From assembly GCA_001051155.2 (NCBI GenBank), contig JYIP02000007.1:3536342-3600341 (forward strand): 64,000 nt of DNA, in the 5' to 3' direction. Source of the stretch: Chrysoporthe austroafricana. Lineage: Eukaryota; Ascomycota; Sordariomycetes; Diaporthales; Cryphonectriaceae. Below are positions 9,422 to 59,851 of this stretch, one piece after another. A program made the translations under genes and the position numbers. How positions within the stretch are numbered: the stretch's first letter is position 1; each line of letters begins with the position of its first letter. Under the pieces are notes generated by a model. That model was given only the letters and a program-made list of their open reading frames with translations. It did not search any database and was not told where the DNA came from.

Positions 9422-9539
9422 TTTTCTCAATTCTTATTCAAGAATAGTTCAGTATATACCTTTTGAATAATACCGGAAATACGATAGCGCCTTAAACCCT
9501 ATCTTTTTCTAGCAATTAAGCTTTTCAGGAAAAAGCCCT

Positions 9540-10420: not shown

Positions 10421-12449
10421 GGAAATCAATCCTAAAGAGATAAGTTAATATTGCTTAGCAATAAGAACCCAATTAGCTAAGCAATAATATCCTATCGGAA
10501 TAAGCAGCAAACTCTAAATATAATAGTATAAGCTAAATAGCTTGCTATTAAAATTATTACTTATTATACTTTTTAGCAAAAGAAAGTTTAAAATAGTTTT
10601 TATACAAACTTAAAAGATAGAAGCAATTCGCTATAAAGAGAAAAAGCCTTATTTATAATACGGCTATAAATAATAGCAATTCCGACTATTCAAATAACTT
10701 CTTTAATATTAAAGAAAAAGATTTAGGAAGGTTTTTCCTGAATTACTACCGCAAACGATAATAAAACGCAATAGTAAAAGAAATATTCGATATTCAAGAA
10801 AAGAAAATGCTTATACCCAGTATTATATTCGAAAAAATAATCTTATAAAACAGATAGCCGGATAACTTATTATCCTCTATACAAAAAGAAGAGCCCGATA
10901 TAGAAATAGCGAAAACGGCTTCTTAATATATAAAATAAAAATGACCGGAACGAAATAGCTAAATATCCAAGCATATAAAAATTAAATACCTTATTTATAA
11001 GCTTATATTATAAAAACTCTTCCAAAGCATTTCATTTCAGAATAGCGAATATAGACTTTAAGAAAATGGAAAGATTAATTACTTATACTTTCATTATTAC
11101 GAACTTATTTGGATATGCTATATTTATTACAATTGCCAGATATATTTTAACGAGAAAGTCAAATACAATTAGTTTCCAATCCGGGAATAAGACTAATTGA
11201 TCCAATCCATTATAGAATCCTAAAAAAAATATAGGAAAGTTTTGTATATTGAAAACAATAATGCTTATATTAAACTACTTGACAATTATTTATAAAAATG
11301 CATTTAAAGAAAAACGATATAAGAATAATGCTATATTATAGCATGCTCTATCTATATATAAGACAAAGCCAAAAAATAGTATCGATTGCAGAAAGCCGAG
11401 AAGGTAAGGCAATACGGCTAAAGCTAAGTACGGAAATTAGCAAGATAAGTAACGAAAAAAGCCCAGAATATTCCAAAAAGGAAGGATTGCTTATAACGAG
11501 ATAGCAGCCGATTAAAATTACGAGGTCTTTATGCGCGATTACGAAAAAGAATAAGAAATATATTATACTAAATGCATATATTAACGGGCAGCAATATAGT
11601 ATATTTTTGGATAATAGCATATAAAGAAATTTTATCTTGCTAGAAATCGTTAATAGGGAACGAATTTTCTAAATGCAAAAGAAAAATCTTTATAGATTCA
11701 ATATTATAAAAGGAAAAGCAGTTATATATAATCTTAATATAATCGATATGGAAACTGATTACTTATTTATCTCGATCCAAAACCTTATAATAAAAACTAT
11801 TTTCGATATTATAAATATAGCATAGCATAAATTAATTTTGGGAATATTTTGGCTTAAGAAATACAATCTTTATATCGATTGGATTACTAGCTAGATTTCT
11901 TAAGAATAAGCCGTACTTATTAAAAAGGTTATAATTAATAGAAAAAGGAAAGATTTAATTACTAAAAATAATATCGGGAGCATATATTCAAATAGGCTTA
12001 AATATACCTTTAAGGCAGAAAGACTTGCCAAAATATAAAGAAAGGTTACGGATATTTCAAACCTATAAATACAGGTTAAGAACGGATTAAGAATTTAAGC
12101 AACTAGCGATTAGCGGAAAGCTAATATAATGCAAAGCGTTACGAAAAAATATAAACTATAAAACTATAAAGAAATTCAGCTTCTAATACGAAAAGATTAT
12201 AAAAGAAAATTCGGGCTAATAAATAACAAATACTCGAAACCCTTAGAGATTAAATTCCGAAAATAATAATAAAAAGCAAGCAAAGCAAAATACGCTTAAC
12301 AATACTTTTTATTCTTCCAAATCTCAGAAAACGAAAAAAGACCGTTACCGGAATTCGAAAACGTACTAAAAGAATATTATAAATTCAAAAAACTATAGCA
12401 AAAGAAATTCGATACCGGTTTACTAGAATACGGCCCTTTTAATTATAAA
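10421..12449 (+). pseudogene. Protease and linker region (element D)
   Basis: By position this is the aspartic-protease part of pol. No clear D-S/T-G motif survives. The stretches 11298-11504 (+) and 11348-11620 (-) are chance open frames in AT-rich DNA. Confidence 0.45.
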
Positions 12450-13110
12450 ATTCTATTAAAAGAAAGAATAAAACTATAAAATTACTTTATTTATAAGCTC
12501 GACCAAGCAAAGCTCGAAGCATTTAGAAAATATATCGACGAAAATCTAAAGAAAGGCTATATACGGAAATCGCGATTATTCGCAAAATACTCAATCCTAT
12601 TCATATTAAAGAAGAACGGCAAATTACAATTTTATATAAATTATCGATAGCTTAACGATATTACGATTAAGAATTGCTATCCCTTACTTTTGATAGAAGA
12701 AATGCGAGATCGACTAATCGGAATAAATTAGTTTATTACGTTTAATCTTAAAAAAGGATATTATTATATCCGAATTAAAGAAAATAATATTTGGAAAATA
12801 GCATTTAGAATTCGTTACGGATATTTTGAGTATATAATCTTACCTTTTAGTCTAATTAATACGCTTGCATTTTTCCAAAAGATAATTAATAATATTTTCC
12901 GCAAATACTTGGATATTATTATTATTATTTACTTTAATAATATCTTTATTTACTCAAAAAACCTTAAATTATATAAATAATATATATAGCAAATATTTCA
13001 AACTTTATAAAATAATAAATTCTTAATCGAATTAAACAAATACTATTTTTATTAATAAAAGGTTAATTATTTCGGTTATATAATAGAATTAAGCAAGATT
13101 AGCATATAAA
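12450..13110 (+). pseudogene. Reverse transcriptase remnant (element D)
   Basis: Readable RT motifs: KGYIRKSRLFAKYSILFILKK, then LNDITIKNCYPL, then [11 protein letters not shown], and YFNNIFIYSKN at about 12927-12960, the place of the catalytic YxDD box. Both aspartates read as N, the result expected from G to A on this strand. Several in-frame stops. Confidence 0.85.
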
Positions 13111-15110
13111 AAGATAAAGTTTAAATAATAAAAGAATAGCTTATATTAGGAAAAATAAAAGAAATTAAAGCATTCTTTGGCTATATTAACTTTTACCGAT
13201 AGTTCATTCGGGATTATAACAAAATCGTATGCTTTCTTACGGATCTTACGAAAAAAAACTGGAAATTTGAATAAATATAAGAAGCATAAAAAGCATTCGA
13301 TAAAATTAAAAAACGAATTATATTAGAACCCATACTTTGCGAAGCAGATTCAAATAAGCTATTTGAAATCGAAATTAATATATCGGATTATGCATTTAGA
13401 AAATAACTTAGCTAACGAGATAACCAAGGATATTTCAAAATCGTAAGCAACTTTTCAAAAAAGTTAAATAGCCCGGAACTTAATTATAGCATTCCGGATA
13501 AGGAATTGATAGCAATTATAAAAGCATTTAAGGAATAGCAATACTATTTAATTGGAACTAAATACCAGATTATAATATATTCCGATTATAAGAATTTAAT
13601 AATATTTATAATAATAAAAGTCTTAAATAAACGATAAGTTAAATAAGCAGAATTTCTTTTATAATTCAATCTAAAAATTATTTATTGCAAAAAATCCGAA
13701 AATAATAAAGCAAATATATTTAGCAAATAGTTAGATTATTAGGATATAGAACCCAGAGAATTCCAGAATATTTTCCGATAAAACAAAAATAATAATCTTG
13801 TAAATAAAATTAAAGAATTTAATACAATCGTTAAAATCTCTAATAACGAAAAGAAACTAAAAGATATAATAACGGAAAAATAAAACGAATATATTAAAAG
13901 TATATATAGCGTATTAGCATACGGCTATTAAGGAATTAGAATTACGTACGAAAGAATTAAGAAATATTGGAATCTTTTAAGCTTTAGAAAAAGGATTGAA
14001 AATATCTTACGAGAATGCAATAGCTGCAAGAAAAACAAGATTAAATATTATAAGCCCTATAAACTATTCCAATCGCTTTTTATTTTAGAAACAATTTGGC
14101 AATCTATTAGCTAAGATTTTATTACTAAATTATTCCTTTTACGAAAACCTTTAACCAAAATGCAATATAATAGTATTTTAATAATAGTTTGTAAACTGAA
14201 TAAATATGCTTATTTCTTTCCTTATAAAGAAAGCAGTATAGCGGAAAATCTCGCATATATATTTTTCAGAATAGTTATAGCCAATTATAATATGCTTAAA
14301 GAAATTATTTCCGATAAAGATAAGAAGTTCGTATCAAATTTCTAGACTTTATTTATAAAGCTATTTGGAATATAGCAAAAAATATCTATAGCATTTTACT
14401 TATAAATAGATAAATAAATAAAACGAATAAACTAAATTATTAAATAATATTTATAGCATTATATAAATTATAAGCAAAATAATTAAATCGACTTGCTATT
14501 ATTAATATAATTTGCATATAATAGCGCAAATATAAATATAATAAAAGAATTACTATTTTATGCGCTATACGGCTATAATCCGATAGCCTATTATAACGAA
14601 TTATTAAGAGCAAATACAAAAATAACAGAAAAACAAATCCGGAAAATTAAGAAAACCCAAAAAAAGCTTCAAGAAAAACTGAAATTTATATAAACAAGAA
14701 TAACAAAATATACTAATTCCAAAAAGATTAAAAGATTAATCTTATAGGAAAAGGATAAAATTTATTTTATTTAATAAAAAAAATATATTAGAATAATAAA
14801 ACCTTCTTACTCGCTAAACTATAAGAAACTTAACCTATTCAGGATTTTAAAGAAAATTTCAGATATTAATTTCGAATTCGTATTACTTTATAGAATAAAA
14901 GTTTATTCAGTATTCCATATTTCGCTTTTCGAACTAGTATTTAACGCAACCAAAACGGACAAATTTATACAAATCGAAACCAATAAACCGGAATACGAAA
15001 TCGAACGAATCCTTAAATATCGAAAACCGACCAAATATAGAAAATATCTAATCAAATAGAAAAAATACTACTTAAACGAAAATAGCTAAAAATCAGTTAA
15101 TAACTTAAAT
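13111..15110 (+). pseudogene. RNase H, integrase and chromodomain remnant (element D)
   Basis: RNase H tail near 13540-13730; integrase core open at 14160-14345 (YKESSIAENLAYIF, then EIISDKDKKF), nearly identical to element A 631-816; chromodomain YEIERILKYRK near 14995-15030. Many stops. The order RNase H, integrase, chromodomain is that of fungal chromoviruses. Confidence 0.85.
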
Positions 15111-15157
15111 AATATACAATAAGCATTCGAAAAATATTAAAAAAGATAACTAATTAA

Positions 15158-15820
15158 TTAATTAGAAAAATAGCCAAGAGAACCCGGGATAGCTTTATAT
15201 ATTGCAATCGGATCAATAGCGGACCAATTATTGCTAGAATCAAATTGCTGCAAAATAGTATCTAAATCGAAACTCTCGGGAAGAAAGCTTTCAGGGATTA
15301 AAGCTTCCAAAATACGATATTCGGTCTTAGCCCTATAATATTCCTTTTCCGCTTCTTCTGCCTCTAACCGCTCTAACTCTTCAATAATATCCAGATCCCG
15401 ACATATTGCGCAAGCCATTTTTTCAGCTTACAAATAACGCTATTTCCGCAGCCGAAAAACTTTTGCATTAGCCAATATCGCTTCCTTTTCAGTAGCATTC
15501 AATTCCGCCTCAATTTAGGAATACTGCTTTACAATCCGCTATATCTAAACCGGAATAAGGCTTGCTATATTACAATTATTCCGCTTGCTGCGAATATATT
15601 TGGCATAACGTAAAGAATCCTCTTCCGAAACGCAATAGAAAAGATTACGATCCGAACAAGAAGAATACGCAAGCATTTCAGAATAGCGGGAAAAAACCGT
15701 AAGCCAAAGGGTATTGCTCTAATCCGTTTTCTTATAGAAACGTTTTTCGATTTTACAGGATATTCTAATCAGGAAAAGAGATATTAGAAAAAAAGGGTTG
15801 ACAGGGGCCTTACAGGAAAT
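15158..15820 (-). pseudogene. Antisense cysteine-rich ORF of element D, C-terminal part open
   Basis: The minus strand 15418-15158 is open for 86 codons and strongly charged (EELERLEAEEAEKEYYRAK), ending in an acidic serine/asparagine-rich tail. Upstream (15420-15820) the frame continues with stops and a degraded Cys cluster. It matches the ORFs at 1655-2306 and about 7880-8480. Its survival as the longest open stretch of the element may be chance or may reflect selection on the minus strand. Confidence 0.65.
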
Positions 15821-15853
15821 TGTCAGGGACAATAATTGACAAGAAAGGGATAA

Positions 15854-16302
15854 TATTATAACCCAATATAGGAATGGCCTGCTAACGTATCAGAAAAGCG
15901 GGAAGGGCTTATAACCTATCTAGTATAATAACTCTATTAAGGAATACCTATAAGGATTATATAATCCAGGGTTAGGGGTTAGATTGACAGAATCGCTATC
16001 GGTCCTAACGGTTTTGTAAGGACCGATAATATCGATAGCGGTCCTATCGGTCCAGAACTGAAAAGCTGGATATATAAGAACAGGACAACTATTAAGTAGA
16101 TTATTATAGCTTTTCAGTTGAGAATCTAAATATTACCTGGACCCTACTATACCTTTAGATAATAGCTATATTGGCTTATAAATATTGTAAATATTTGTTT
16201 TAAACGAGTTTCCGGTATTCAAAGCTATACTTAATACCGTCCTTGCTAGCATAAACCTTTAGCCTTACAGTTTATCCTAAGATTACTGCAGCGTTTATAA
16301 TA
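15854..16302 (+). repeat. 3' LTR of element D (449 bp)
   Basis: Same length and ends as the 5' LTR. Contains AGGGTTAGGGGTTAG near 15970 and a perfect 12-bp inverted repeat, AACTGAAAAGCT (16056-16067) and AGCTTTTCAGTT (16108-16119), with TATATAAG in the loop. Confidence 0.9.
16056..16119 (+). promoter_or_regulatory. LTR promoter: TATA box inside a 12-bp inverted repeat
   Basis: TATATAAG lies just after the left arm; arms are 12 bp, perfect, 40 bp apart. The same layout is seen in the 5' LTR and, less perfectly, in the split LTR of C. Likely the retrotransposon core promoter; a role of the hairpin itself is inference. Confidence 0.5.
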
Positions 16303-16334
16303 ACATTTTAGGATTTGCTGCAGCGTTTATAATA
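16303..16334 (+). repeat. Target duplication and right end of the LTR of element C
   Basis: ACATT (16303-16307) repeats ATATT at 8968-8972. TTAGGATTTGCTGCAGCG...TTATAATA completes the LTR interrupted at 8972. Confidence 0.85.
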
Positions 16335-16970
16335 TATAAATTAAAGTGCGGCATTAAAGCTATTCAAAACGGCTTACTTAATACTAAGATTTTCAGGCTT
16401 AGCTGCAAAACTAATTAAGCGCTTATATAAGGAATGGTTAAGGATAAAATCGATAAAATCGATAAAATCGATAGAATCGATAGAATCGATAATCGATTTA
16501 ATAAATTAATAAATTCGATAGTCAAACTTATTGAATTTAATTAAAAACCTGAATATATAAGAATAAAACATTTATTAAATAAATTACTATAGCTTTTTAA
16601 TTATAAATTTAAGTATTATTTCCCTTATAAAGTAATAGCCGTATAAGCTTATAAATACTTGCATTAAAAAATCCATTAATTATTTCTTTATTTATAAAAA
16701 TTGTATTTAATATTACATTTACTAATATAAACTTTTTAATATTGCAAGTATTTTAAGATATTACAATAGCATTTATAATATTTTTACAACTCTTATTTAA
16801 ATACGGTTTAGTATATACCCTTTAAGCAATAAGGAAATACAATAGCTTTTCAGACGCTTACTTTATCTAATACGGATCGCAACCTATTTCTTTAAGAAAT
16901 TATTAAAGCCTTCCAGAAATCCGTTCAGCAGCTTAAATATACGATTAGTATTAAAACTTACAACTTCAAA
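16335..16970 (+). repeat. LTR and leader fragment of a further element (E) and a 9-bp tandem repeat
   Basis: Positions 16443-16487 hold five copies of the 9-mer GATAAAATC/GATAGAATC plus a partial one. From about 16540 to 16780 an LTR fragment is readable (GAATATATAAGAATA, ending ATTTATAATA), followed by a gag leader (TTACAACTCTTATTTAA) like that after the D 5' LTR. At about 16,960 base composition changes abruptly to GC-rich, the edge of the RIP-affected block. Confidence 0.65.
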
Positions 16971-17485
16971 CTGTCTTCGCCTGCATACACCCACACAATC
17001 ATCACCGATCGCAGGCCACGAGGTCGCAGCCAGACAGCCGCAGCTATCGTAATGGCCAACCAGATGCTGCAAATCGTACGTCCAACTCTTTCCAGGCCCC
17101 CTCTCAGTTTTCGAGCTGCAAATAGGCCGGCTGTTATACGGACACCCAAGGGCGTCCTGGGAAAGGTAGAATATTGAGGCATTGCGGGCTACGCGCCGTC
17201 GGGCATGAAGACCCGCCCAACGACAGGAAGAAAAGTACCCAACTGCATAAAGAAAGGGGGCTGTGCAATGGATGCCTGAGGCAGACGTCGAGAACCAAGG
17301 TCTATAAGTACGGCGGGAGCAAGCCCGACGGATCAAGGATGGACTTGGTTCTTCAGCACTCCTTAGACCACCTTAACAGTTATTATTAAATGAAGACCCC
17401 TTCCAAGCTCAGAACTCTGCCCTTGTAACACCGGCCATCAGCGTAACTAACAGCAGCGCGACCGTCTCAGAACCGCCTCGACATC
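16971..17485. other. GC-rich stretch without a recognisable gene
   Basis: Frames on both strands (16884-17336 minus, 17174-17389 plus) are open but overlap each other and resemble no family I know. I see no promoter, RNA or repeat here. Confidence 0.4.
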
Positions 17486-20690: not shown

Positions 20691-21195
20691 TATGTTGGAC
20701 CCTGAGCATATATTGCCGGCGGATGGAATGGCCAATCTCAAAATTCGTCGGCGAGCATGCTGCTAGGTCTCAATTCGGCAGAGCTCTGTATCATGCCGCC
20801 GTACGCCCAATTCTTCGTTCGCGTGGTCCGTATTCCCGCAAAGAACCTCTTTTTCCTTCCGACCTCCCTTGATTTCCCAGGCGCGATACCCCGCGTCGAG
20901 AAAGTACGGGACGTCTTGAGGCTAGTTCAGGTATTTCAAGATACCGGATTTGATCCGTCCAAGCTATCGAACCAAATCTTTAGCCTTGTTACCCCTAACG
21001 AGTAGAAGAAGTTCCAGAAAGCAGCCTGCGTGTCCCCGGCGCATCTTTTGCAAACTGCCTTCACGGGCCAGATACCTCTTGTCTCGGGTGAATTTCAGGT
21101 CCTTTGCGTGGAAGGTAGGCGTCGTATCGAGGCTGCGAAGCTATCCCTCAAGGAAGATGCGTGGTGGACTATCCGGCTCTACTGTATTCCAGATG

Positions 21196-21251
21196 GTATG
21201 ACCTCTTCACCCGCTTCGACTTGTTTCTTTCCCCGGCTGACCCGTCTGTAG
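21196..21251 (+). other. 56-bp spliceosomal intron in the DUF3723 pseudogene
   Basis: Donor GTATGA, branch-like GGCTGAC, acceptor CTGTAG. Removing it joins ...YCIPDG to RIREAVMR and moves from frame 0 to frame 2, where the family-like sequence continues. Confidence 0.8.
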
Positions 21252-22715
21252 GACGTATACGTGAAGCCGTAATGCGGTCCTTCACGGCTAGCTTTTCTCA
21301 CGAAGCAGCTTACTCGGATAGAGAGATTTACCATAATCTCAGGTACTACCAGGGACGAAATGATGACCTGTCATTTCGCAGCTGGGAGACCATGCTTAGT
21401 GGGTGTAAGGCGAGAGCTTTCAACCATCTCCTGCCGAGAGAGACCATCCTGGCCGCCCTGGACAGGGTAATATCCTTCCCAGGGATGAGAAGCGGCTTTC
21501 AGCTGGGCAATATAAACAAGTATCTGGCTACCCACTGCCATAAGCTAATTGTACATTATTTGGACTATATCTCTCGGGTTTGGGACCTGATTGTCCACGA
21601 TAGCGGAATGGATTGACAAGCGGTCGATAACAGTACAGTACGGCTCTTTCAGTTCCGGGCTTCGTCGGCCAGCCGAACCGACTAAAGCTTCATCTCTTCA
21701 GCTATGGACGACGGTCACCTCTTCTTCGCCATAAGCGAGCGGGATGCCCGGAAGAGGATCTGCCATACGCTCTTATCCTTCGATATCGTGATTCCGAGCC
21801 TCGAAATATTTCATGAAAACGTGAAATATATTACAATCGGAACGAAGATTCTCGAGAGATACCTGGACATCTTGCCAGAGCGGACCGCATGCCAGACTCG
21901 GGATACGACGCTGTACCGGCCACTTACGTCTTACTGGAACCCTGCCTGCCCGTCCGTAATAGAAGTTAGTGAGGGAACCTTCAAGCACCTGCAAGGCCCG
22001 CCTTCACCGCTCCTTGCCTTCAAGCAGCTTTTCATTTTAATCCTCAGACAGTTCCCGTTTCTCTCGACAGAGATTGCGCTGCGTAACTTTCGGTCGGAAG
22101 CGATGCCGGCGTATACGGACCGATACCGTCTGCACAGGCTGTTGAGACGGGCTCTGGCGCTTGGCTACGATAATTCCAAGATACGCGAAGGCTTGGAAAA
22201 GGCGGGGCGCCTTATCGACCTTGTCAAGACTCCATTAGATGCTGAGCTGCCGGCTCCTGTGGCCGATTGGCATGGGGGTAAACCTTTCGTCCGTACCCTC
22301 CTCACGCTGGCGAGAAGTTCATTCCTGCCGACGCTCGAACAGGCTAACGGCAGCGGAGGTGTGACGGCTGAATTTTTCCAGAATGATCTTGTGACGGCAT
22401 TTTTCGGCAAATTGTCGTATCAGATCGACATATCCAAGCAGGGCGTCTCTATCCTGGACGACGTTGATACGTAACGAAACGCCCCCGAAAGTGATATTAT
22501 GGATTTCGGTTCACACGTTAGTGCTACCGGTGGCACGGAAAGTCCTGATCATCCCAGGCCTCGTCTAAAGTCAACGCCATCGAGAGCAGGCAAACGTGCC
22601 GCGGGAGACAAGAGCAAGCTGGATCATCTTTCAGCCAGAAGGGCACGGAAAGGACGCCAGGCCAAGCCCAACCTTCGACTCCGTTCTCAACGTCTTCCTC
22701 AAAACCGGTCGCGAG

Positions 22716-28630: not shown

Positions 28631-28682
28631 CCACCTCGCATCTTGTACAGCTCCCATGCGACCTCTCTCTCTCTGCAAAGCC

Positions 28683-28795
28683 CTATGTCCCTCTTGCAGA
28701 GCCTCATGTCCCTCCTGCAGAGCCTCATGTCCCTCCTGCAGAGCCTCATGTCCCTCCTGCAGAGCCTTATGTCCTTCCTGCAAAGCCTCTCTTCC
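28683..28795 (+). repeat. 21-bp minisatellite, about five copies
   Basis: Unit CATGTCCCTCCTGCAGAGCCT repeated head to tail with few changes; it lies just beyond the 3' end of the minus-strand gene at 28814. Confidence 0.8.
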
Positions 28796-28813
28796 TGTAA
28801 CCTCTCTCGGCCT

Positions 28814-29040
28814 TTATCTTGCCCGTAGCTGACGTCTTCCTTTGGTACTCGTAGTGGTTGTAGTGTTGCCAGCCTCGGCTCTAGTGCTCGTCCTAGGGCC
28901 CGTCTTGCCGCCCGTCTTGCCGCCCGTCTTAGTGCCCGTCTTGCCGCCCGCCCTGGCCTTGCCGCCCGTGTTGGTGGTGCTGTTGCCTGCCTTGGTGCTA
29001 GCAGGCCGTGGTTTCGACCTGTCGTCTGCAGCGTCCGGAG

Positions 29041-29072
<32 letters not shown>

Positions 29073-29956
29073 ACGTCGGCCTGGCCGTGCTTCCCGAGCT
29101 GCAGGAGCTGGGCATCCGCACCCGAGAGCTGCCGGCGCCGGGCGCGTGTGAGCCGGGCGCATGATGACGGCGGTGGCATTGCTGTCTCCTCAGCCGTCTT
29201 CCTCTTCCTGGCTGGTGTTCCCTTCCGTCCTGGCTGGGCCGCCTGCCCCCAGTGGGAGCCGTGCTCGGGCCCCCATCTCCTCTTGCTGCGGGATGCCGCG
29301 CCGGCCGCTGGGAGTGGTGGTAGTGGCGGCGCATGTGTGTCTGTCCTCCTCTTCTTGGTGGAGGGGCCTGCCTGCATCTCGTTCTCGGGCTGCTCCTCGT
29401 CCCGGGCCCTCTTGTTGCCTCTGCGGCGTGGTGTGTCTGTCCTCCTCTTCTTGGCGGAGGAGCCTGCCTGCGCCTCGTCCTCGGGCTGCTCCTCGTCCCG
29501 GCCCCTCTTGTTGCCTCTGCGGCGCGACACCTCGTGGCCGGCGTCCTCGGCAGCAACCTGGTCCCTCGCCAGCAGGTAGGCGGGGAACATCGACTCCTCT
29601 TCGTAGGGCACTGGGATGTCGCTATAAGGCCCTGGCTCGTGCGGATCAATCTCGCTCAGGGACTTGCCGGGGGGGCCGGGAGGCATCCGAGGCCACTCGA
29701 CGGGGTTGGCAAAGTCGTCTATCGTTGCAAGCCCTGCATCGATCAGTATATCTTGTTCGACTAGCCTGACTTCGTGCGCCATATCATCATCGTCTGGAGA
29801 GCTCTCGCTATGGGGCGACGGCAGCCCCGCCGCCTTCCTTGCATAGTAGTTGTCGAGGAACGTCTGCCGCCGTTGGTCTCGGGCGGCCGTCCATCTCTCG
29901 TCGTACTCGGCCTCCGTCTCGTCCGGGCGCCTGGGAGAACAATATCCTAGAGGCAT
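28814..29956 (-). CDS. Basic/acidic low-complexity protein (380 aa), unknown
   Basis: ATG at 29956 (MPLGYCSPRRPDETEAEYDE); upstream the frame is open but without ATG. Residues 1-150 look folded or conserved (RWTAARDQRRQTFLDNYYAR, then DDFANPVEWPRMPPGPPG and YLLARDQVAAEDAGHEV). Two tandem copies of a nuclear-signal-like unit (RRRGNKR-RDEEQPE-AKKRRTDT) follow, then a polyglutamine tract (CTG/CAG repeat at 29043-29072) and a Lys/Gly/Thr-rich tail (GGKTGTKTGGKTGGKTG). Uninterrupted, GC-rich and divergent from the FHA-kinase gene with about 310 bp between starts. Probably nuclear; no known domain. Confidence 0.6.
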
Positions 29957-30268
29957 TATTGTGCTTGCTGGTGCTGGTGCTGGTGATGATGGCAATGTGG
30001 GTGTGATGATGTTGGGAGACAATGTAGTTGGTGTGTCGTCGTCGGAAGGGAAGAAGAAAGAAGAGGAGGTGGTGGACCCGCCGCCTGGAAAAGCGAGTCA
30101 CCATTGCCGGCCGGCAGCTTAGCGCCACTGACAAAGCAATTGTGACAACGTCCAAGTCTCGACAGCGACAGCGCTTGCATTCCCGCTATTATCAATCATC
30201 ATCATTAGCACATCACTAGCACATCACTAGCACATCACTAGCACATCACCAGCACATCATATCACACG
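29957..30268. promoter_or_regulatory. Divergent intergenic region with an 11-bp tandem repeat
   Basis: Between the divergent genes at 29956 and 30269. Five 11-bp units A(C/T)(T/C)AGCACATC occupy 30204-30258, ending 10 bp before the kinase ATG, so they lie in its leader. No clear TATA box. Confidence 0.5.
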
Positions 30269-32032
30269 ATGTCATTGTCGTCTTTCCGCTTTGCAACGCT
30301 GACCCCGGAGAACAAGGCCGCCCAGCAATGCCTAGCAACCCTTGTCGACCGCCAGCCACCCGAATCTCCTGTCCACCTCGTCGCCGTCGCCCAGGCCGAA
30401 AGCCCTACCCAGACAAAGCCCACCGTCCGCGCCGCACGCTCCAAATACCAGCTTGTGCTCTCGCTCGGCAACCCAGGCTCCGGTCATGAGAATGGCTGGG
30501 TGATCGGGAGGCTGGGCAAGGCATCTACAGTCGATCTGCCGATCTGCTCGTCTAGGTCGCGCTGTCTGAAGGGATTGCGGTTCTGCAGCATCGTCATCCA
30601 TCCGCAGTCCGGGGCCTTCGTCCTGTGGAATATGAGCGAACACCACTCGATCTTATACTTGCAGGCTGATAATAACGCCGATGTAGAGCTGCGGTATAAT
30701 GACAGGCATGTCCTTCATATGCGGACCAACCGTTTCCGTATCGGCCTGCTGGACTTTGTGCTCGAGTTTTCCGCCGAGGACGAGATTGCATATTCAGCCC
30801 ATCTCGAGAGCTATATGCAGAAGCGCTATCAGGGCTGGGATCATTACTGCCGTATGCGGGAATACAGCTGTCTCGATATGCTGCCCGGGCCCGCACAGCT
30901 CGATATGCGGAATGTCATTATCCATCATGCCATCTCCAAGGGGGCCTTTGGCGTGGTCCGGGCCGGCGTAGAAAAGCGGTCCGGAAACGTAGTGGCCTGC
31001 AAGACGATTCATTGTCATTCTTCCGAGATTCTGTTTGTCCGGAACGAGGTCGAGATTGCGAAACAGATCCCTTGCGGGACTGTCGGCATTATCCCCTGCC
31101 TCGCAACATGGTGCGAACACGGCGACCCGTGGCCCTGTTCGCGGGCCAAGCTCGAGGACGTGCACCTCCTCATGCCGTATGCGCCCTTCTCGTTCGCTAC
31201 GGCGCCGTGGCAGGACATCGACCTGCCTACGCGGCTGGCCCTCTTCCGCCAGGTATTCGAGGGCCTCAGGAACCTGCACGCCATGGGTATCATGCACCGC
31301 GATATCAGCCCCAGGAACCTGCTGGTCTTCTCGTGCCGGGCCCCCGCCTCGGCCGCCGCGGCTATCTGCGACTTCGGCAAGGCCAAGGTGGGCAGGACGG
31401 GCGCCCAGGCGTCCCTCGGGCCCGCAGGCTTTACGGCGCCGGAGGTCGGGCGCGACGGGGGGTACGATAATGCTATCGATATCTTCAGCCTGGGGCTCTC
31501 CATATTGGCCACCCTCACGACGTGGGACAGCACAGGGCCCATGTCCAGGGACAACCATACGATGATCCTTGAGCGTCTTGCCGGCCTCCAGGGCCGCATC
31601 CCCGACAGTCTCAGCGCCCTCCTCCGTTCCATGCTGGCGTGGGACCCTTCCGCCCGCCCGACGGCCGAAGAAGCTCTGGCCGGCCGGGCCTGGGAGCAGG
31701 TCGCGGTGGTGGCGGCGGTGGCGGCATCTGAACCCGAGGAGGACGAGGACGAGGACGAGGACCAGAGCAGCGGCGAGGCCTCTGGGCCTGGCTCCGGCGG
31801 CAGCAGGACGCGGGTAGAGAGGAGGTCGAGACCGCGGCGGTCGGGCGGCCCCTCTCTCTCGAGCGTACGGGCGATGGACAGGAGGTTGCGAGCGGATGCC
31901 CCGCCGGCTGGGTCCGGGAGCCGGTCAGGAGCTGCAGACAAGAGACCGAGCTCTTACGCGTCCGGCCCGGAAGAGGCAAGCAGCCGTTCCCTACTTCCAT
32001 CCTCCTTTTCCCATCACCGCGAGCACCGATAG
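30269..32032 (+). CDS. FHA-like and serine/threonine protein kinase (587 aa)
   Basis: Single uninterrupted ORF with ATG at 30269. Residues about 75-150 resemble an FHA domain (GWVIGRLGKAS, then an Arg/Cys-rich turn and FVLWNMSEHHSILYL). The kinase domain runs from about 220: glycine loop SKGAFGVVRAG, lysine in VACKTI (about 243), HRDISPRNLL (HRD at 343-345), DFGKAK (368), TAPEV in the APE position (about 390). All key residues are present, so it could be active. The tail is disordered with an acidic run (EEDEDEDEDQ) and Arg/Ser-rich ends. The order FHA then kinase is that of Rad53/Chk2-type kinases, but similarity outside motifs is weak; it looks like an accessory fungal kinase. Kinase debris at 34.7-34.9 kb may be related. 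Confidence 0.75.
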   Translation: MSLSSFRFATLTPENKAAQQCLATLVDRQPPESPVHLVAVAQAESPTQTKPTVRAARSKYQLVLSLGNPGSGHENGWVIGRLGKASTVDLPICSSRSRCLKGLRFCSIVIHPQSGAFVLWNMSEHHSILYLQADNNADVELRYNDRHVLHMRTNRFRIGLLDFVLEFSAEDEIAYSAHLESYMQKRYQGWDHYCRMREYSCLDMLPGPAQLDMRNVIIHHAISKGAFGVVRAGVEKRSGNVVACKTIHCHSSEILFVRNEVEIAKQIPCGTVGIIPCLATWCEHGDPWPCSRAKLEDVHLLMPYAPFSFATAPWQDIDLPTRLALFRQVFEGLRNLHAMGIMHRDISPRNLLVFSCRAPASAAAAICDFGKAKVGRTGAQASLGPAGFTAPEVGRDGGYDNAIDIFSLGLSILATLTTWDSTGPMSRDNHTMILERLAGLQGRIPDSLSALLRSMLAWDPSARPTAEEALAGRAWEQVAVVAAVAASEPEEDEDEDEDQSSGEASGPGSGGSRTRVERRSRPRRSGGPSLSSVRAMDRRLRADAPPAGSGSRSGAADKRPSSYASGPEEASSRSLLPSSFSHHREHR

Positions 32033-49533: not shown

Positions 49534-52155
49534 TCACCCCATCGACTCGTCCCGCCGTTTCTGGTCTGCGGCGACGGCCGCCTGCCTCCGAGCCCGGCCG
49601 GCAGAAGAAGGCCCGGCCGTGGTGCCCGGTTTCGGGTCGGGGAAGTCTGCATCCGCCCGCTCCCCCTTCCTCGCTTCGGCATCTTCTCGCCGCTGCACGT
49701 GTGCCTCGTCTTCCGGGCTGAGCTCCTCCACGGGTGATGAGCTGAGCAGCCCATCTTCGAAATCCCCAGACCAGTGCCGTGGATGCTGCAGATCGTCGTT
49801 TTCTTCTGCTGCGGTCTGTTCTTCGGCGCTGATGATGGCTTCGTGGAGCCGCTCGAAAGGAATCCGAATCATCGGCTCGCTTTTATCTGCAATGCGATCT
49901 ACCGTCGGGTTATCGAAATCTTGCAGTTGTAGTTCGAGGGCACCAGGCAGGACCTGACCGAACGTGTCTCGAATCATCTGTAGATATATATTAGTTAAAG
50001 ATTCAGCTGGAAGGCAAGGCAAATAAATAGACGTACTGTTTTTCGCTTCTCGATTCTGAAACGCGTCCGATCATGGATATCCCCACCCCTAGGATTTCCG
50101 GCGTCAATCCTTTCCCGGCACCGGAATTCCAAAAGCCAAGTCTCAAGGCTTCCGGGTTTATTATCGATTCCGAGAAGTACTTGCACATATAACGCATTGG
50201 GTTTAAGCAAATAGTCGTTGGCAAGACGGTTCAGATCTTTTTGCTTTTGCGACCAGGATATTTCGAGTATTACAGCCGGATATTTCTCACCACTGAGACA
50301 CCACGAGCCGTCAGGCTCATGCTGGGACTCGCCATAGCGCCGCCGCGTTGATCCCGAAGCACGAATACGAGTAGCCAAGCGTACGGCTTCGGCAGAGCCG
50401 CAAGAACGGATCCTCGTCAGCTCATCGCGAATCAATCCTTTCACTTCCTCGGATAAGTTGTCGTGGAAAGTGCCAGGCATCCGAAATACGACTTGCTGTG
50501 TATCGGGAAAATAATCGTAACGGAGCTTGTCCTGGACGTACGACCATAGGCGAGGCTCCAGATGCTCCGCCTGCGCGATCGCTTCCTGCAGCGCCGCCCA
50601 GTCGCAAACAGATAGCGGGACTGGGAACCAAGGGTCGGCGGAGATGGCAAAGCCCTCGCTGCGCTGTCGGATGAGGCCGAGCACTAACCTTGCCCCTGGA
50701 GAGAGGTGAGCGGTGTAGTCCGCGTCCGGGCCTGGTGCTGATGCAGGTGCAGATGCGAGAAAGGATCCGCCGGCGGCCTTGGTGGTGGTGGTCGTGGGGG
50801 TGCTGCTGTCGCTGCTGCTTGGCTGCGCCGATGACCCGCCCGGTACAGAAGCGTGCTCGTGCTGGTGGTGCTCGAGCGCGTGCACGCTGTCTGCATCCGC
50901 CCGCTCCCCCTTCCTCGCTTCGGCATCTTCTCGCCGCTGCACCTCTGCCTCGTCTTCCGCGCTGAGCTGCTCCACGGGTGACGAAGGGGGCTGCGGCACT
51001 CCGGGGTCCTCGGACCAACATGTTGGGTCTTCTGGATCTTCGGCTCCCGCTGCGTCTTCTTCTATCGCGACATCGGTTTCGGCGTAGCGAATTGCTTTAT
51101 GGAGCCGGTCAAAGGGGATGCGAACCGGCTCGGTTCGATATGTAATGCCTTCAACGGCCGCATTGCCGAAATCCCGAAGCTGCAGCTCGAAATTGCCAGG
51201 CAGGAACTGACCGTATTCGTTTCGAATAATCTATAAATATACATTAGCTAAGATATAGCTAAAAGGGGAAAGCAAATATATATACATACCTTTTTTTGCA
51301 TGTCGAGCTCGAAATCCATCGGGTTATCGCTAGTCTTTTGCCGGCGCCGATATTCAATAAGCTGGATCTCAAGGCCTTCAGGGTCAATATCAATTCCGAG
51401 AACGACCTGAATTCGTGGTCCACCGGCTCCGAACAGATAATCGTGGGCAAGACGGTTCAGATCCTTTCGCTTTTGTGACCAGGATACCTCGAGTATAACA
51501 GTCGGATATCTCTGGTATTTTGCTTCTTTGCTGGTAGGATCCCCGCTACCGACTTTCCACGAACTATCGGGCTCATGTTGGACCAGTATATAGCCGTTGC
51601 CATTTCTGGGAACCTTAAAGGTCCACCGTTTTGATCTCGACATATAAATCCGATTAGCCAAGCAAATAGCTTCAGCAGAGCCGTAAGAACAGATCTTAGC
51701 TAGCTCATCGTTAATCAGTTTTTCAGTTACCCCGCATAAAGCCTCGTGGATAGTGCCAGGCATGCGAAAGACGACCTCCTGTACGTCAGGGAAATAGTCG
51801 TAACGGAGCTTGTCCTGGACATACGACCATAGGCGGGGCTCCAGATGTTCCGCCTGCACGATCGCTTCTTGCAGCGCCGCCCAGTCGCAAATAGATAGCG
51901 GCACTCGGAGCCAAGGGTCATCGGTGCCAAGGCCCTCGCTGCGCTGTCGGATGAGGCTGAGCACCGACCTTGCCCCTGGAGAGAGATGAGCGGCGTAGTC
52001 CGGGTCCGGGCCTGGTGCTGATGCTGATGCTGATGCAGATGCAGATGCAGATGCAGATGCAGATGCAAGAAAGGATCCGCCGGCGGCAGTAGTGGTAGTA
52101 GGGGAGCTGCTGTCGCTGCTGCTTGGCTGCGCCGATAACCCGCCCGGTACAGAAG

Positions 52156-52191
<36 letters not shown>

Positions 52192-52276
52192 GGTGGTGCT
52201 CGAGCGCGTGCACGCTGTCTGTAGGCTCGGGCGGGGAGCTCGACTTGAAATCGGTACGCGGCAGGCTGGATTCCAT
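49534..52276 (-). CDS. Tandem-fused nuclease-like protein, two copies in one frame (874 aa, three exons)
   Basis: Exons 52276-51290, 51230-50037 and 49977-49534. Both introns are 59 bp (GTATGT...TATAG and GTACGT...TACAG) at the same place in each copy. Unit 1 (MESSLPRTDFKSSSPPEPTD, HEHEHEHE and ASASAS repeats) has SICDWAALQEAIVQAEHLEP, DKLRYDYFPD, VVFRMPGTIHEAL and YPTVILEVSWSQKRKDL (E about 263). Unit 2 has the same blocks (YPAVILEISWSQKQKDL). The ILE(V/I)SWSQK block with a following hydrophobic strand (IQVVLGIDID) resembles the core of PD-(D/E)XK-type enzymes of the Uma2 or related kind; this assignment is tentative. Exon 2 runs from the tail of unit 1 (AEVQRREDAEARKGERADAD) straight into SVHALEHHQHEH of unit 2 without start or stop. 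Confidence 0.65.
49978..50036 (-). other. 59-bp intron, unit 2 of the fused gene
   Basis: Minus strand GTACGTCTA...TAACTAATATA...CTACAG; joins IEKRKT to MIRDTFGQVLPG in frame. Confidence 0.75.
51231..51289 (-). other. 59-bp intron, unit 1 of the fused gene
   Basis: Minus strand GTATGTATAT...TTAGCTAATGT...TTTATAG; joins DMQKK to IIRNEYGQFLPG in frame. Confidence 0.75.
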
Positions 52277-52376
52277 GGTCTGTTGCGGGTGAAGCGTGTG
52301 AAGTGAATGGTAGAAGTGAAGCGAGTGAAGGGGAAGCTTGCTGTGTGTGATGTAAAGTGACACGATGTGTGTGATG

Positions 52377-52814
52377 GAAAGTGACGCTGCGGGACGGCGA
52401 CCGCCAAACCGGATCTAGCTAGTACACAGGCAACTATCTTGGATGCGCTGTAGTGATTCCGAACTGCGAACCTCACTTGCTAATTACCTCTGTTCTCTAT
52501 GAAGTACCTAAATGCATCAGGTAGCGCGATCCAGCTGAGCAAACGGCTGGCTATTTGTAACCGCACGGACTCTTACCAAGCGGCCAAGTATCATTACCCG
52601 CATCCTAAAAGCCCTTACTGCACGGATTATTCGATAACTAAGAACCATTCAGAATAGTCACCCTAAAGGAGATTATATTATATACAAGTAGTCTTATGGA
52701 TACGCATTATCCTAGCTTTGTTCTGGCTCTAGTTACTGTCGGGGATACCTGAAAGGACCCGGTGACGTCTGACGGCTTTGCGGTGCTGTAGGGTGCTGCG
52801 CTCCTTGCCACCTC
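52377..52814. other. Upstream region of the fused gene, nothing else recognised
   Basis: GTGTGATGxAAAGTGAC occurs twice (52347, 52370) just upstream of the start, likely promoter or leader. No other gene. Confidence 0.35.
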
Positions 52815-55599: not shown

Positions 55600-55857
55600 T
55601 TAGAGTCTGAAAAATGGCACGGATGTTGAATTAGGCCAGGGGTTAGAACTAGAATCCCTGCCCCCCCCCCCTCCGCGACAACGCTGAAAATCCTTCAATG
55701 CTCGAGCGTTCTTCATCTTTGTAGCAGAATGGCCTTTACAATGACTCAACATTAGTATACCAATCACACTCCCAAAAGGTACTGATGTCTTCAGCGCCCT
55801 AAGAAACAGACCGGTAACGGCGATTACTTGTTGAATATTGACAAGGCTCTCAGGCAC
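55600..55857 (-). pseudogene. Hypothetical protein start, MPESxVNIQ type
   Basis: Minus-strand frame of 85 codons from 55857 (MPESLVNIQQVIAVTGLFLR), with a polyglycine run and a stop. Only the first nine residues match the start at about 25990. Probably a relic. Confidence 0.3.
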
Positions 55858-56130
55858 CCTCTCTGGCTCCCTGGCCTGATAATCTTGTCTAGCGGTAGTG
55901 CCAAAGGATAAATCCTTTGGCGCGACCGGAGACTTTTCCTTGCTAACTACGGGTTGCTTGAGATAGCCAGCTTTCCTTTCCGTTTGCCCGGAGGGGAAAG
56001 ATAAGCTGTATTTCCAGACCCCTAGGGGGCCAGAGGGCCCTCTATATAAGGGCGGCTTTCCTCCCTTCCAGATAGTTCAGCTCAAAAAGCTTCAATATAC
56101 ACTCGTTCGTTCCCTATAAAAAACAACATT
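55826..56130 (+). promoter_or_regulatory. Repeat R3 copy 2: promoter-like segment with TATA box
   Basis: Homologous to 25985-26310. TATATAA at 56043-56049, then GGCGGCTTTCCTCCCTTCC, AAGCTTCAATATACACTCGT and an A-rich leader. The first ATG downstream (about 56161) opens no long frame, unlike copy 1, which precedes an RRM fragment. Confidence 0.6.
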
Positions 56131-57124: not shown

Positions 57125-57361
57125 TTGCGTCCTCCTTCGAAGCCAATGCCTGGAGACCATTACCGCTTCTGGGCTGATGAAGTGTTCCCTTCTCTTTTTG
57201 CTGAGGCCTGGCTTACGCGCGCGGCACGACGGCCGCGTCCTATCGCATCGCTGCGCTACGGGAGTAGGTACTGCGCCCTTGCTACCTCTCGGGATCGCAT
57301 CAAACAGGCGACGCAGTGCATTCCGGCTGATGCAAACTTGCGCGTGGTGAGCGTGGCGTAA
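57125..57361 (+). other. Possible upstream exon or relic before the SPOK-like gene
   Basis: Frame reads PGDHYRFWADEVFPSLFAEA and YGSRYCALATSRDRIKQATQ, protein-like, with GTGAGCGTGGCG just after, a possible donor. A TCTTGCAG acceptor stands at 57560-57568, 16 bp before the SPOK-like ATG. Joining them is not proven: a similar segment at 41258-41310 has no SPOK-like gene next to it. Confidence 0.35.
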
Positions 57362-57583
57362 GCGTGAATGCTGAAGACAGCCTTCCAAAGATATGCAAGA
57401 AAAGATGAGATGGGGTGGGCCGAATCGGTCCCGAGACCGTCCGTGCGCGTTGCCCTGCCAACTGCTGGGGGCCTGATTGGCGCTTATCCCAGGCGCCGAT
57501 AAACCAGCCGCGTCGGCTCGTTCCCCTGCCGCGACAACGTCAACATAGCATTCCTCTCTGTCTTGCAGGCGCCCAGTCGTCGC

Positions 57584-59851
57584 ATGACAACCATCACACT
57601 CGATATGGACGATGAGATCGTGAAACTTCGGCAGGCCCTTGCTGAGGCCGAGGCTCGCGCATCGAATGAGCAGCGCTGGCGCGAGGAGGAGCAACGCCGG
57701 CGCGAGGAGGCGGAACACGTCGCAAGGCCAACACAGCTACAGTCCTATCTCGAGGCCTGCCACTCCCTCAGCCTTGCTATCCGGGTGGTCACCGATCGTT
57801 CTCTGACCACACAAGGCGGCGTGACGAACCCCGTCGGCCGGATCTACCCCCGTCGGATCGTGCCATGGGACGATTTCCCAGCGAGACAGGAGGAGATCTG
57901 GGACCAGCTCTCTGAGCCATCGTTCGCCTCGCAGCGGCAGTTCCCATCCCGGCACCAGCTGGACTACGTGCTGTCTGTCATCGGCCCCATCAGCAGCGAG
58001 AACGGGCTGCGCTACTTCGAGCGCGACACCGTCGAGAATGCGGTGCAGAAGTTGGTCGGCGCGGTCCACGACCATCCGCTGCTGCGCGACCGCCTCGGCC
58101 TGCGCGGGGCCGTGTCCTTCGAGAGCCACACGAACCTTGGCGACAGCGACGGCAACGGCGACGGCAATCTCCTGTCTCAGTCTCTGGAACAGATGTCCCT
58201 GAGCCCGCGTGATGCCGGTACCGCCTCAGCGGCAGCGACGACCTCTAAGGGCCGGAAGACACTCAAGGGGATAGGGAAGGGCAACCGCGCGGACCAGTTC
58301 TGCATCTACAATACGCTGGACGGCGAGAACATCCCCAAGACGGCGATCGAATACAAGGCGCCGCACAAGCTAACGCAGGACGAGGTCACTACGGGCCTGG
58401 TTTCCGAGATCCAACCGGACCGCGACGTCATTAACAAGGACGCCAACGACTTCGCGGCTATGTCGAGGGAGCTCGCCGCTGCCGTTGTCACCCAGCTCTT
58501 CTCTTACATGGTCGGCAAGGGCATCCAGTACGGCTATGTCTCTACGGGCCAGGCCTTCGTCTTCCTGCACATCCCGAACGATCCTACTGTCGTGTATTAT
58601 TTTGTCAGTGTGCCCAACCTGGATGTTGCTGCGGACGATGAGAACAGGCTGCACCGCACGGCCGTAGCGCAGGTGTTCGCCTTTGTGCTGCAGTCCCTTC
58701 GCGCAGAACCGCCTCCACAGTCGTGGCGCGACGCGGCCGCCGTGCTTGACACGTGGGCCGTGGAGTACGACGATGTGCTGAGCAGGATCCCCGAGACGGT
58801 TCGGAAGGGCAAGGAGCCTCGCGCTTCCCCTTATAAGGCACAGCGCTGGCGTGGCTTCAAGCGCTCGCCGATTAGGACTCGGTCGAGCTGCCAGCCAGCC
58901 GGCGTCGAGCCTGGCACCCGAGACGATAGTGAAGACGACGAGGCCGGCCCGCCCTCACCAGCTGCGGAACGGTCGAGACGCCTAGGCAAGACGGCAACCA
59001 GTTCAGGAGCAGGGTCCGGGTCCGGGTCCAGCGGGCAGCGGGGACGGCGAGGGAGAGGAGGGCGGGAACAAGGAGACCCGGGCCGGAAGCGGATACAGGA
59101 ACGCCCATACTGCAGCCATCGCTGTCTTCTCGGCCTGGCCCGCGGCGGGCTGATGGACCCGAGCTGCCCCAACGCCGCGAGCCACGGCGCTGCTCACATC
59201 AGCCAGGCCGAGTTCCTGCGCCTCCTCCGCGCCCAGCTGGCCGAGGACCGCGGCCCCGACGCGGACGCCGTCCCTCTCTACCTGTCCGGCGCTGTCGGGG
59301 CGCTCTTCAAAGTTCGGCTGTCCACCCACGGCTACACGCTCGTCGCCAAGGGCGTGCAGAGACCCCACCTGGAGCGTCTCCGGCACGAGGAGCAGGTGTA
59401 CGACCGCCTCCGCCCGATCCAGGGGAAGCACGCGCCCGTGTGTCTCGGCCTGCTCGACCTGGTCCTGCCGTACTACTACGACTGTCGGGCCTTTCGGCAC
59501 TTCCTCCTGCTCAGCTGGGCCGGGAAGCCGCTACCCGGCTGCGCCGGCCTGCTCGACAAGGCGCAGGTCGTCGGCGCCGTACAGGCGGCCTTCGCAAGCC
59601 TGCACCGGCTCCGGGTCCTCCACGGTGACGCCGAGGCGCGCAACCTCACCTACGACAAGAGCATCATGATCGTCGACTTCGAGAGGGCGACGTTCTATGC
59701 CCGCCAGCCCCTCGGCCCGGTCGCCGTGAACAGCTGCACCGCCACTCGGAAGAGGAGGCGCAGCGCATCGCAAAAGCAAGAGACTTCTTGTTTCGGGAGG
59801 GAGCTGCAGTCGGCTGTGAACAGCGTGTTGAGGCATTGGAGCATACGGTGA
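57584..59851 (+). CDS. SPOK-like protein: coiled coil, PD-(D/E)XK nuclease, Cys cluster, kinase-like domain (755 aa)
   Basis: ATG 57584; the frame extends upstream to 57563 without another ATG. Residues 5-50 form a charged coiled coil (QRWREEEQRRREEAE). A PD-(D/E)XK core is visible: D237 in RADQFC, then E256-x-K258 in TAIEYKAPHKL. A disordered, basic linker (about 410-505) leads to a Cys cluster C510-x3-C514-x13-C528 with a nearby His. The kinase-like part has K589 (LVAKGV), HGDAEARN (H680, D682, N687) and DFE (698-700) in place of DFG. This order and length match SPOK spore-killer proteins of Podospora, single-gene meiotic drivers acting as both poison and antidote. All key residues are present and the frame is unbroken, so it may be functional. 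Similarity is by architecture and motifs; no alignment was possible. Confidence 0.8.
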   Translation: MTTITLDMDDEIVKLRQALAEAEARASNEQRWREEEQRRREEAEHVARPTQLQSYLEACHSLSLAIRVVTDRSLTTQGGVTNPVGRIYPRRIVPWDDFPARQEEIWDQLSEPSFASQRQFPSRHQLDYVLSVIGPISSENGLRYFERDTVENAVQKLVGAVHDHPLLRDRLGLRGAVSFESHTNLGDSDGNGDGNLLSQSLEQMSLSPRDAGTASAAATTSKGRKTLKGIGKGNRADQFCIYNTLDGENIPKTAIEYKAPHKLTQDEVTTGLVSEIQPDRDVINKDANDFAAMSRELAAAVVTQLFSYMVGKGIQYGYVSTGQAFVFLHIPNDPTVVYYFVSVPNLDVAADDENRLHRTAVAQVFAFVLQSLRAEPPPQSWRDAAAVLDTWAVEYDDVLSRIPETVRKGKEPRASPYKAQRWRGFKRSPIRTRSSCQPAGVEPGTRDDSEDDEAGPPSPAAERSRRLGKTATSSGAGSGSGSSGQRGRRGRGGREQGDPGRKRIQERPYCSHRCLLGLARGGLMDPSCPNAASHGAAHISQAEFLRLLRAQLAEDRGPDADAVPLYLSGAVGALFKVRLSTHGYTLVAKGVQRPHLERLRHEEQVYDRLRPIQGKHAPVCLGLLDLVLPYYYDCRAFRHFLLLSWAGKPLPGCAGLLDKAQVVGAVQAAFASLHRLRVLHGDAEARNLTYDKSIMIVDFERATFYARQPLGPVAVNSCTATRKRRRSASQKQETSCFGRELQSAVNSVLRHWSIR

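What the first reader, a model, noticed from the sequence alone, without database searches (positions are those of the whole stretch)
57125..59851. Intact SPOK-type spore-killer homologue in an accessory region
Seen: one unbroken 755-codon frame with an N-terminal charged coiled coil, a D237...E256-x-K258 nuclease core (AIEYKAPHKL), a C-x3-C-x13-C cluster and a kinase-like HGD...N / DFE pair. Known: SPOK proteins of Podospora have this order and about this length, act as single-gene poison-antidote meiotic drivers, and travel on Starship elements. Inferred: this copy could be an active or recently active driver, as most neighbours are riddled with stops while it is not. DFE in place of DFG is worth noting.
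Basis: partly seen in the sequence, partly recalled or inferred. Interest (0 to 1): 0.88.

Follow-up and report, generated by a model that had tools for sequence, protein, structure and literature searches.

The report
SPOK-like poison-antidote gene near mating-type locus
This fungal gene looks like an undamaged relative of the SPOK spore-killer genes; such relatives are common in fungi, but here most of those found crowd into one stretch around the mating-type locus, where two copies carry changes in the poison core while the antidote core looks intact.

Summary
In detail: window 57584-59851 (+) is an unbroken ATG-started 755-codon frame with the stated nuclease, cysteine and kinase residues. 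It belongs to the broad SPOK family; the best of 618 database matches is Cryphonectria parasitica, 71% identical, and the host is a near relative of that fungus. DFE is the family norm. The gene's subfamily is about 35% identical to the one holding Fusarium, Beauveria and Polytolypa relatives; I saw no test of killing for it. No Starship captain match lies within 149 kb.

The setting is more interesting. 11 of 17 SPOK-family loci found in this genome lie in 2.23 Mb (4.6%) of contig C20 that holds SLA2 and a MAT1-2-1-like gene but none of 129 loci of three housekeeping families (interval drawn after seeing the gap). In C. parasitica the MAT region is reported as non-recombining and transposon-rich. 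Two open copies there have altered nuclease cores and excess divergence of that half, with kinase residues intact: candidate antidote-only copies. Whether any copy drives is unknown. The gene itself is a new member of a known kind.

The parts
57584..59851 (+). SPOK-family gene, 755 aa, single unbroken frame including stop
   Evidence: 618 matches
57596..57721 (+). N-terminal coiled coil (residues 5-46)
   Evidence: AF2 model helix 5-46, block pLDDT 69 for residues 1-10 and 92-95 for 11-50
57731..58123 (+). N-terminal folded domain of unknown function (residues 50-180)
   Evidence: AF2 model; corresponds in position to SPOK3 domain 1 (PMC6660238 section 17)
58274..58858 (+). PD-(D/E)XK-type nuclease domain (residues 231-425)
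58292..58357 (+). nuclease catalytic residues D237 and E256-x-K258
58493..58507 (+). QxxxY motif (Q304-Y308)
   Evidence: motif described for SPOK3 in PMC6660238
59111..59197 (+). Cys-His cluster C510-x3-C514-x13-C528-x5-H534-x3-H538
59204..59848 (+). kinase-fold domain (residues 541-755), proposed antidote half
59621..59644 (+). catalytic loop HGDAEARN (H680-N687)
59675..59683 (+). DFE (residues 698-700), the family's counterpart of DFG
   Evidence: E in 115 of the 120 listed homologues
57347..57568 (+). possible 5' UTR intron (GTGAGC or GTAAGC to TTGCAG, 15 nt before the ATG); inference only
   Evidence: Podospora Spoks share a 5' UTR intron (PMC6660238 sections 9 and 16)
20967..22198 (+). 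DUF3723 gene with in-frame stops (context; a Starship-associated family, recalled)

Best explanation
The gene encodes a one-protein poison-antidote factor of the broad SPOK family. Proposed working: the N-terminal coiled coil mediates assembly; the PD-(D/E)XK domain damages DNA (poison); the Cys cluster plus kinase-like domain neutralises it in cells that carry the gene (antidote). In a cross between carrier and non-carrier strains, spores lacking the gene would die. It is one of 17 family loci found in a Cryphonectria-like fungus, most of them in the probable mating-type region, where copies appear to turn over: some keep both halves, some have a changed poison core with the antidote core kept, some are broken. 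Shown here: family, intact frame, residues, kinase fold, location, paralogue states. Inferred from SPOK biology: poison and antidote roles, drive. Not shown: any activity, expression, polymorphism or linkage.
Against: The subfamily is about 35% identical to relatives of tested FuSpoks and I saw no test of it. Four of six Fusarium homologues showed no effect in yeast although the paper reports conserved catalytic residues (PMC12693581 section 17), so intact residues do not prove activity. The nuclease-half fold match is below the tool's usual confidence line, unrelated folds share ranks 2-8, and Foldseek gave no match at E<=0.001. The second His of the Cys-His cluster and the K-to-Q spacing differ from SPOK3. 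No second strain, cross or expression data. The pairing of window gene and C. parasitica relative (support 100/100) fits vertical descent and long retention, which could also mean a domesticated gene.
Confidence: 0.55

Rival explanations
1. A SPOK-family gene kept for another job (for example genome defence or a vegetative or heterokaryon function), fixed in the species and not driving.
For: Closest relative is in C. parasitica with 100/100 support; P. anserina itself has three further Spok-like genes, each at the same locus in strains S and T (PMC4022471 section 14); four of six tested FuSpoks gave no yeast phenotype.
Against: Copy number and mixed intact/decayed states in one genome look selfish; relatives nearest to the window clade come from distant fungal classes, e.g. 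Trematosphaeria and Geoglossum.
Confidence: 0.25
2. Former driver: intact by sequence but already fixed or matched by antidotes, so no killing occurs now; decay has simply not begun.
For: Drivers stop driving once fixed (known biology); three of the seven open full-length copies have a changed nuclease core while kinase K589, D682 and N687 stay in 7 of 7.
Against: No relaxed constraint is seen in the window copy.
Confidence: 0.25
3. The MAT-region clustering is passive: SPOK copies, like transposons, pile up wherever recombination and selection are weak, with no link to mating type.
For: The interval has none of 129 core-family loci and its repeats recur widely; FuSpoks were enriched in accessory regions in 16 of 24 genomes (PMC12693581 section 15); the C. 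parasitica relative is listed on a 1.0 Mb contig, shorter than the MAT scaffold position of 2.08 Mb, so probably not MAT-linked there if the same assembly is meant (not checked).
Against: Other long gaps between core-family loci (C19 1.72 Mb, C21 1.52 Mb) hold none of the 17 loci.
Confidence: 0.6
4. An unrelated nuclease-kinase family with no SPOK members.
For: Podospora SPOK1-4 are not named among the listed matches of the two SPOK-family searches (120 of 618 and 120 of 408).
Against: A source names P0038, 60% identical, 'putative spok spore killer'; nearly all published SPOK3 landmark residues are present; the listed members of both subfamilies carry one Pfam family, PF27653.
Confidence: 0.03

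Closest known systems
Podospora SPOK1-SPOK4
   Same: Order coiled coil, unknown domain, PD-(D/E)XK, Cys cluster, kinase; length; catalytic residues as described in PMC6660238
   Different: SPOK3 K240 to Q294 is 54 residues, here 46; the SPOK cluster is given as H-x7-H, here H-x3-H. Killing proven for SPOKs, untested here. Spok3/4 ride the Starship Enterprise (PMC12941216 passages); none found here
FuSpok1/FuSpok2 (Fusarium poae) and the Fusarium/Beauveria/Metarhizium/Polytolypa subfamily
   Same: Listed relatives share the Pfam family and the residues; accessory or core-gene-poor location; many copies per genome
   Different: About 35% identical; different subfamily in the tree. The host's own C8 and C20:3962k copies group with that subfamily (100/100). 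FuSpok1/2 themselves were not identified among the listed hits, only F. poae FPOA_13328
Cryphonectria parasitica EP155 M406DRAFT_269932 (P0002)
   Same: 71% identical over 99%, sister in the tree
   Different: I saw no study of it; listed on a 1.0 Mb contig, probably not the MAT scaffold (not checked)
Antidote-only wtf genes of Schizosaccharomyces and Spok2 of P. anserina strain A
   Same: Antidote retained while poison lost (PMC12941216 and PMC12693581 passages; strain A), the state suggested for C20:4212k and C20:2707k
   Different: wtf is an unrelated family (recalled); strain A Spok2 is an allele, the copies here are separate loci, and their state is inferred from sequence alone
Restriction endonuclease BpuSI / HsdR nuclease domains
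   Same: BpuSI is the best structural second-look match of the nuclease half; HsdR of EcoR124I is also listed

Membership tests
SPOK family (broad) | Three ordered domains (coiled coil + domain 1, nuclease, Cys cluster + kinase) separated by unstructured linkers | tested here: met
   755 aa; AF2 model pLDDT 82, pTM 0.79 with low-confidence linkers 182-229 and 429-497; SPOK3 layout
SPOK family (broad) | PD-(D/E)XK catalytic residues and QxxxY | tested here: met
   D237, E256, K258, Q304, Y308 present
SPOK family (broad) | Restriction-endonuclease-like fold of the nuclease half | tested here: inconclusive
SPOK family (broad) | Cys-His cluster C-x3-C-x13-C-x5-H-x7-H before the kinase | tested here: inconclusive
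   C-x3-C-x13-C-x5-H exact, second His spaced x3 not x7; the spacing of the second His varies widely in the other subfamily too
SPOK family (broad) | Kinase-like domain with catalytic Asp | tested here: met
SPOK clades I/II of Vogan 2019 | Groups in a tree with Podospora SPOKs rather than with distant homologues | tested here: inconclusive
   SPOK1-4 and SpokN sequences not retrieved; window falls outside the subfamily holding proteins of Polytolypa, F. oxysporum, Beauveria and M. rileyi, species named in that paper's tree
SPOK family (broad) | Shared 5' UTR intron | tested here: inconclusive
   Intron-like signals only, no RNA data
Single-gene meiotic driver | Killing of non-carrier spores and resistance of carriers | not testable with these tools
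   needs crosses
Single-gene meiotic driver | Presence/absence polymorphism among strains | not testable with these tools
   only one genome of the species was at hand; it has no relatives in the genome search
Starship cargo | Lies in an element headed by a DUF3435 captain | tested here: inconclusive
   0 of 23 DUF3435 matches in the window; nearest C20 matches 157 kb and 149 kb from the gene; element borders not sought

The most novel reading that the evidence does not exclude
The mating-type region of this Cryphonectria-like fungus is a stack of linked poison-antidote genes: several complete SPOK-family killers (one only 20.5 kb from the MAT1-2-1-like gene, the window gene 614 kb away) together with antidote-only derivatives. 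A killer fully linked to one mating type is heterozygous in every cross, so it would erase the other mating type unless the opposite haplotype carries a matching antidote. The region would then be held together, and recombination across it selected against, partly because separating killers from antidotes is lethal.
Probability: 0.12. Interest if true: 0.88.

Novelty: new member of a known kind. Interest (0 to 1): 0.52.

Why it matters
The gene alone adds one more intact SPOK relative to hundreds known. Its setting makes an open question testable: do spore killers contribute to recombination suppression around fungal mating-type loci? PMC7898863 mentions spore killer/antidote systems among possible causes (passages), and C. 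parasitica is named as the exception among heterothallic ascomycetes with such a region (PMC9949647 passages). My searches listed no paper whose title or abstract start reports SPOK genes in a MAT region or in Cryphonectria. Of the five papers holding both 'Spok' and 'Cryphonectria' I opened one for passages (PMC9949647), where Spok occurs only in repository names and references; PMC9262711 and PMC6185902, which hold Spok or spore-killer and mating-type-chromosome terms, were not opened. Subscription papers and preprints outside the library were not searched. Candidate antidote-only copies at separate loci would be the first I know of for SPOKs (recalled).

Tried and rejected
Rejected: DFE as an unusual feature (family norm). 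Rejected: own_2612k as a copy without a nuclease half. That was an artefact of my starting the frame at its first Met; the full 653-aa frame holds a D and an E-A-K at the matching place. It is not counted as antidote-only, and its values should be disregarded. Not used for the antidote-only claim: C20:2598k, whose kinase residue D698 is also changed and whose alignment around D237 is unsure. Tried without result: placing SPOK1-4 in the tree (not named among the listed hits; published residue spacings match subfamily A at some points and B at others); MAT1-1 alpha box (no match and no control rang, so not evidence of absence); APN2 through its zinc ribbon (matches on C18 and C12, none on C20, identity not settled); PDB sequence search for the nuclease half (two weak matches, the 60 rows shown all match the kinase half); Rfam on the window (0 matches); Pfam on the window gene (one sub-threshold Pkinase). 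Foldseek on the full model lists kinases in its 50 rows, which says nothing about the nuclease half. Limits of the comparison: the 120 homologues are the top of 618 and so lean towards well-preserved copies. Trees: one search used 127 of 129 rows (own_2612k and own_2897k left out); one search used 51 of 249 rows, chosen by me. The structure alignments A1 and A2 used 92 rows each, chosen by me for diversity.

Full report
What is there. The window is C20:3536342-3600341 of a 48.15 Mb, 22-contig genome. The frame at window 57584-59851 (+) is open from ATG to stop, 755 codons.

Whose genome. The conserved gene TSR1 of this genome is 92% identical to that of Cryphonectria parasitica, with unnamed sequences next at 88% and below, and Discula, Cytospora and Diaporthe at 78-79% (120 of 1867 matches listed). 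The host is thus a Cryphonectria or close relative, not C. parasitica itself. The species is not known to me.

Family. 618 proteins match at E<=0.001; the best 120 are listed, all with precomputed Pfam PF27653. The source names shown are mostly 'hypothetical protein' or kinase labels, with one 'Reticulocyte-binding protein 2-like' and one 'putative spok spore killer' from Podospora aff. communis. The best is C. parasitica M406DRAFT_269932 (71%). My own Pfam scan of the window protein gave only a sub-threshold kinase match. Of the published SPOK3 landmarks (PMC6660238, sections 9, 16, 17 and 19 read, passages elsewhere), the nuclease residues, QxxxY, the first four Cys/His residues and the kinase catalytic Asp are met. 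The second His is spaced x3 rather than x7, and K-to-Q is 46 rather than 54. Across the 120 listed homologues, K258 and the three Cys are unchanged in 120 of 120 and DFE has its E in 115 of 120.

Two subfamilies. A search with the host's own C8 copy (408 matches, 120 listed) brings up proteins of Fusarium oxysporum, Beauveria bassiana, Metarhizium rileyi and Polytolypa hystricis, species named in the published SPOK tree, and of F. poae, the source of FuSpok1/2. That the same species appear does not prove the same genes. The window gene is 34.1-35.5% identical to six named members and at most 36.4% to any of the 120 (median 34.9%), against a median of 61% to its own subfamily. A 51-row tree separates the two with support 98/100 and 100/98 and pairs the window gene with the C. 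parasitica protein at 100/100. SpokN from Nectria, which kills in Podospora, is itself only 33-34% identical to Spok1/2 (PMC4022471 passages), so distance alone does not exclude function. I could not place SpokN or SPOK1-4.

Surroundings. Of the 30 matches of the window protein in its genome, grouped into 17 loci, 12 lie on C20 and 11 of these between 2.254 and 4.483 Mb. That interval, 4.6% of the genome, contains none of 129 loci of three core families (DEAD helicases 34, mitochondrial carriers 38, RRM proteins 57; expected 6.0). It is the longest gap between such loci among the ten contigs with two or more of them; contig ends and contigs with fewer loci were not measured (inputs). For DEAD only 36 of 74 candidates were scored by the tool, so that list is partial. 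The interval was drawn after seeing the gap, so its probabilities (0.002 for the absence of core loci, 2e-11 for the clustering) are descriptive only, and tandem duplicates are not independent. It is not free of core genes: SLA2, a usual neighbour of MAT, is inside at 2.662 Mb. A 338-aa frame with an intron-split HMG box at 2979067-2980083 is, by its recalled motif, MAT1-2-1. In C. parasitica a region of 0.18-2.08 Mb on scaffold 2 is associated with mating type, rich in transposons and called non-recombining (PMC7935491 passages). The two regions probably correspond, which is inference. Against a fixed link, the C. parasitica relative of the window gene is listed on a 1.0 Mb contig.

Mobility. 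None of 23 captain (DUF3435) matches lies in the window. The window does hold a DUF3723 gene with stops and an AT-rich 17 kb block matching other degraded loci. The SPOK gene's upstream flank carries a dispersed repeat of about 300 bp found at 23 other places among the 40 of 66 candidates scored. No Starship is shown.

State of the copies. Seven loci hold a full-length single open frame: the window gene, C20:3001k, C20:4212k, C20:2707k, C20:3962k, C20:2598k and C8:121k. K589, D682 and N687 are kept in 7 of 7. Nuclease residues D237, E256 and K258 are all kept in 4 of 7 and changed in 3 of 7: K258R in 4212k, D237S (with Q304H, Y308H) in 2707k, and E256A with K258E in 2598k, where kinase D698 is also changed. 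The ratio of nuclease to kinase divergence is 0.68 +/- 0.07 in the 120 relatives (maximum 0.89). It is 0.67 for the window gene, 0.68 for 3001k, 0.95 for 4212k and 1.08 for 2707k, with 0 of 120 relatives as high as the last two. Against the other subfamily (mean 0.82, maximum 1.25) the intact C8 copy is also high (1.04, 3 of 120 as high), 3962k is not (0.90, 17 of 120) and 2598k is (1.25, 1 of 120). So the measure is suggestive only, and the relatives compared are the best-preserved part of the hits. The other ten loci are fragments, copies with stops, frames matching one half, or copies split over two frames.

Mechanism. By analogy with SPOK3, where the nuclease lysine is needed for killing and the Cys cluster and kinase for resistance, and with SPOK1, which damages DNA in bacteria and yeast (PMC6660238 passages, PMC9972908 discussion), I propose a nuclease poison held in check by its own kinase-like half. 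I put a working poison-antidote protein at about even odds and current drive lower, since 4 of 6 tested Fusarium homologues had no effect in yeast (PMC12693581, sections 15 and 17).

Verdict. The gene is a new member of a known kind. The clustering in the probable MAT region, one apparently complete copy 20.5 kb from the MAT1-2-1-like gene, and two candidate antidote-only copies are the parts worth a follow-up.

Noticed in passing
G000 C20:3000542-3002803 (L011 1722-4085, -): SPOK-family copy with all checked nuclease and kinase residues intact, 20.5 kb from the MAT1-2-1-like frame.
   Followed up: partly
G000 C20:4212k (L009) and C20:2707k (L010): Open SPOK-family copies with altered nuclease core and intact kinase core; candidate antidote-only genes.
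   Followed up: partly
G000 C2, C16, C17, C18, C19, C21: DUF3435 and DUF3723 matches full of stops lie about 12 kb apart on C2, C16, C17, C18 (two pairs) and C19, and about 22 kb apart on C21, suggesting a family of decayed Starship-like elements.
   Followed up: no
window 1-17000: AT-rich block (GC 22-35%) with internal repeats, the longer pairs about 68-88% identical, matching stretches of degraded DUF3435 loci elsewhere.
   Followed up: no
window 49995-52414 (-): Two neighbouring frames, 411 and 388 aa, about 71% identical at DNA level; only a weak Uma2-type restriction endonuclease match for one (E 0.15).
   Followed up: partly
window 30251-32029 (+): Open frame of 593 aa with a protein kinase domain (E 2.2e-27), just after several tandem repeats at 28673-30266.
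   Followed up: no
window 55829-56129: Dispersed repeat of about 300 bp, about 1.5 kb upstream of the SPOK gene, matched at 23 other places of this genome.
   Followed up: no
G000 C20:2662356 and C20:2979067: SLA2 and the MAT1-2-1-like HMG frame are about 316 kb apart, far more than is usual in Sordariomycetes (recalled).
   Followed up: no
G000 C12:3387524 (L021) and C16:1666433 (L023): Frames matching only the Cys-cluster and kinase half of the family.
   Followed up: partly
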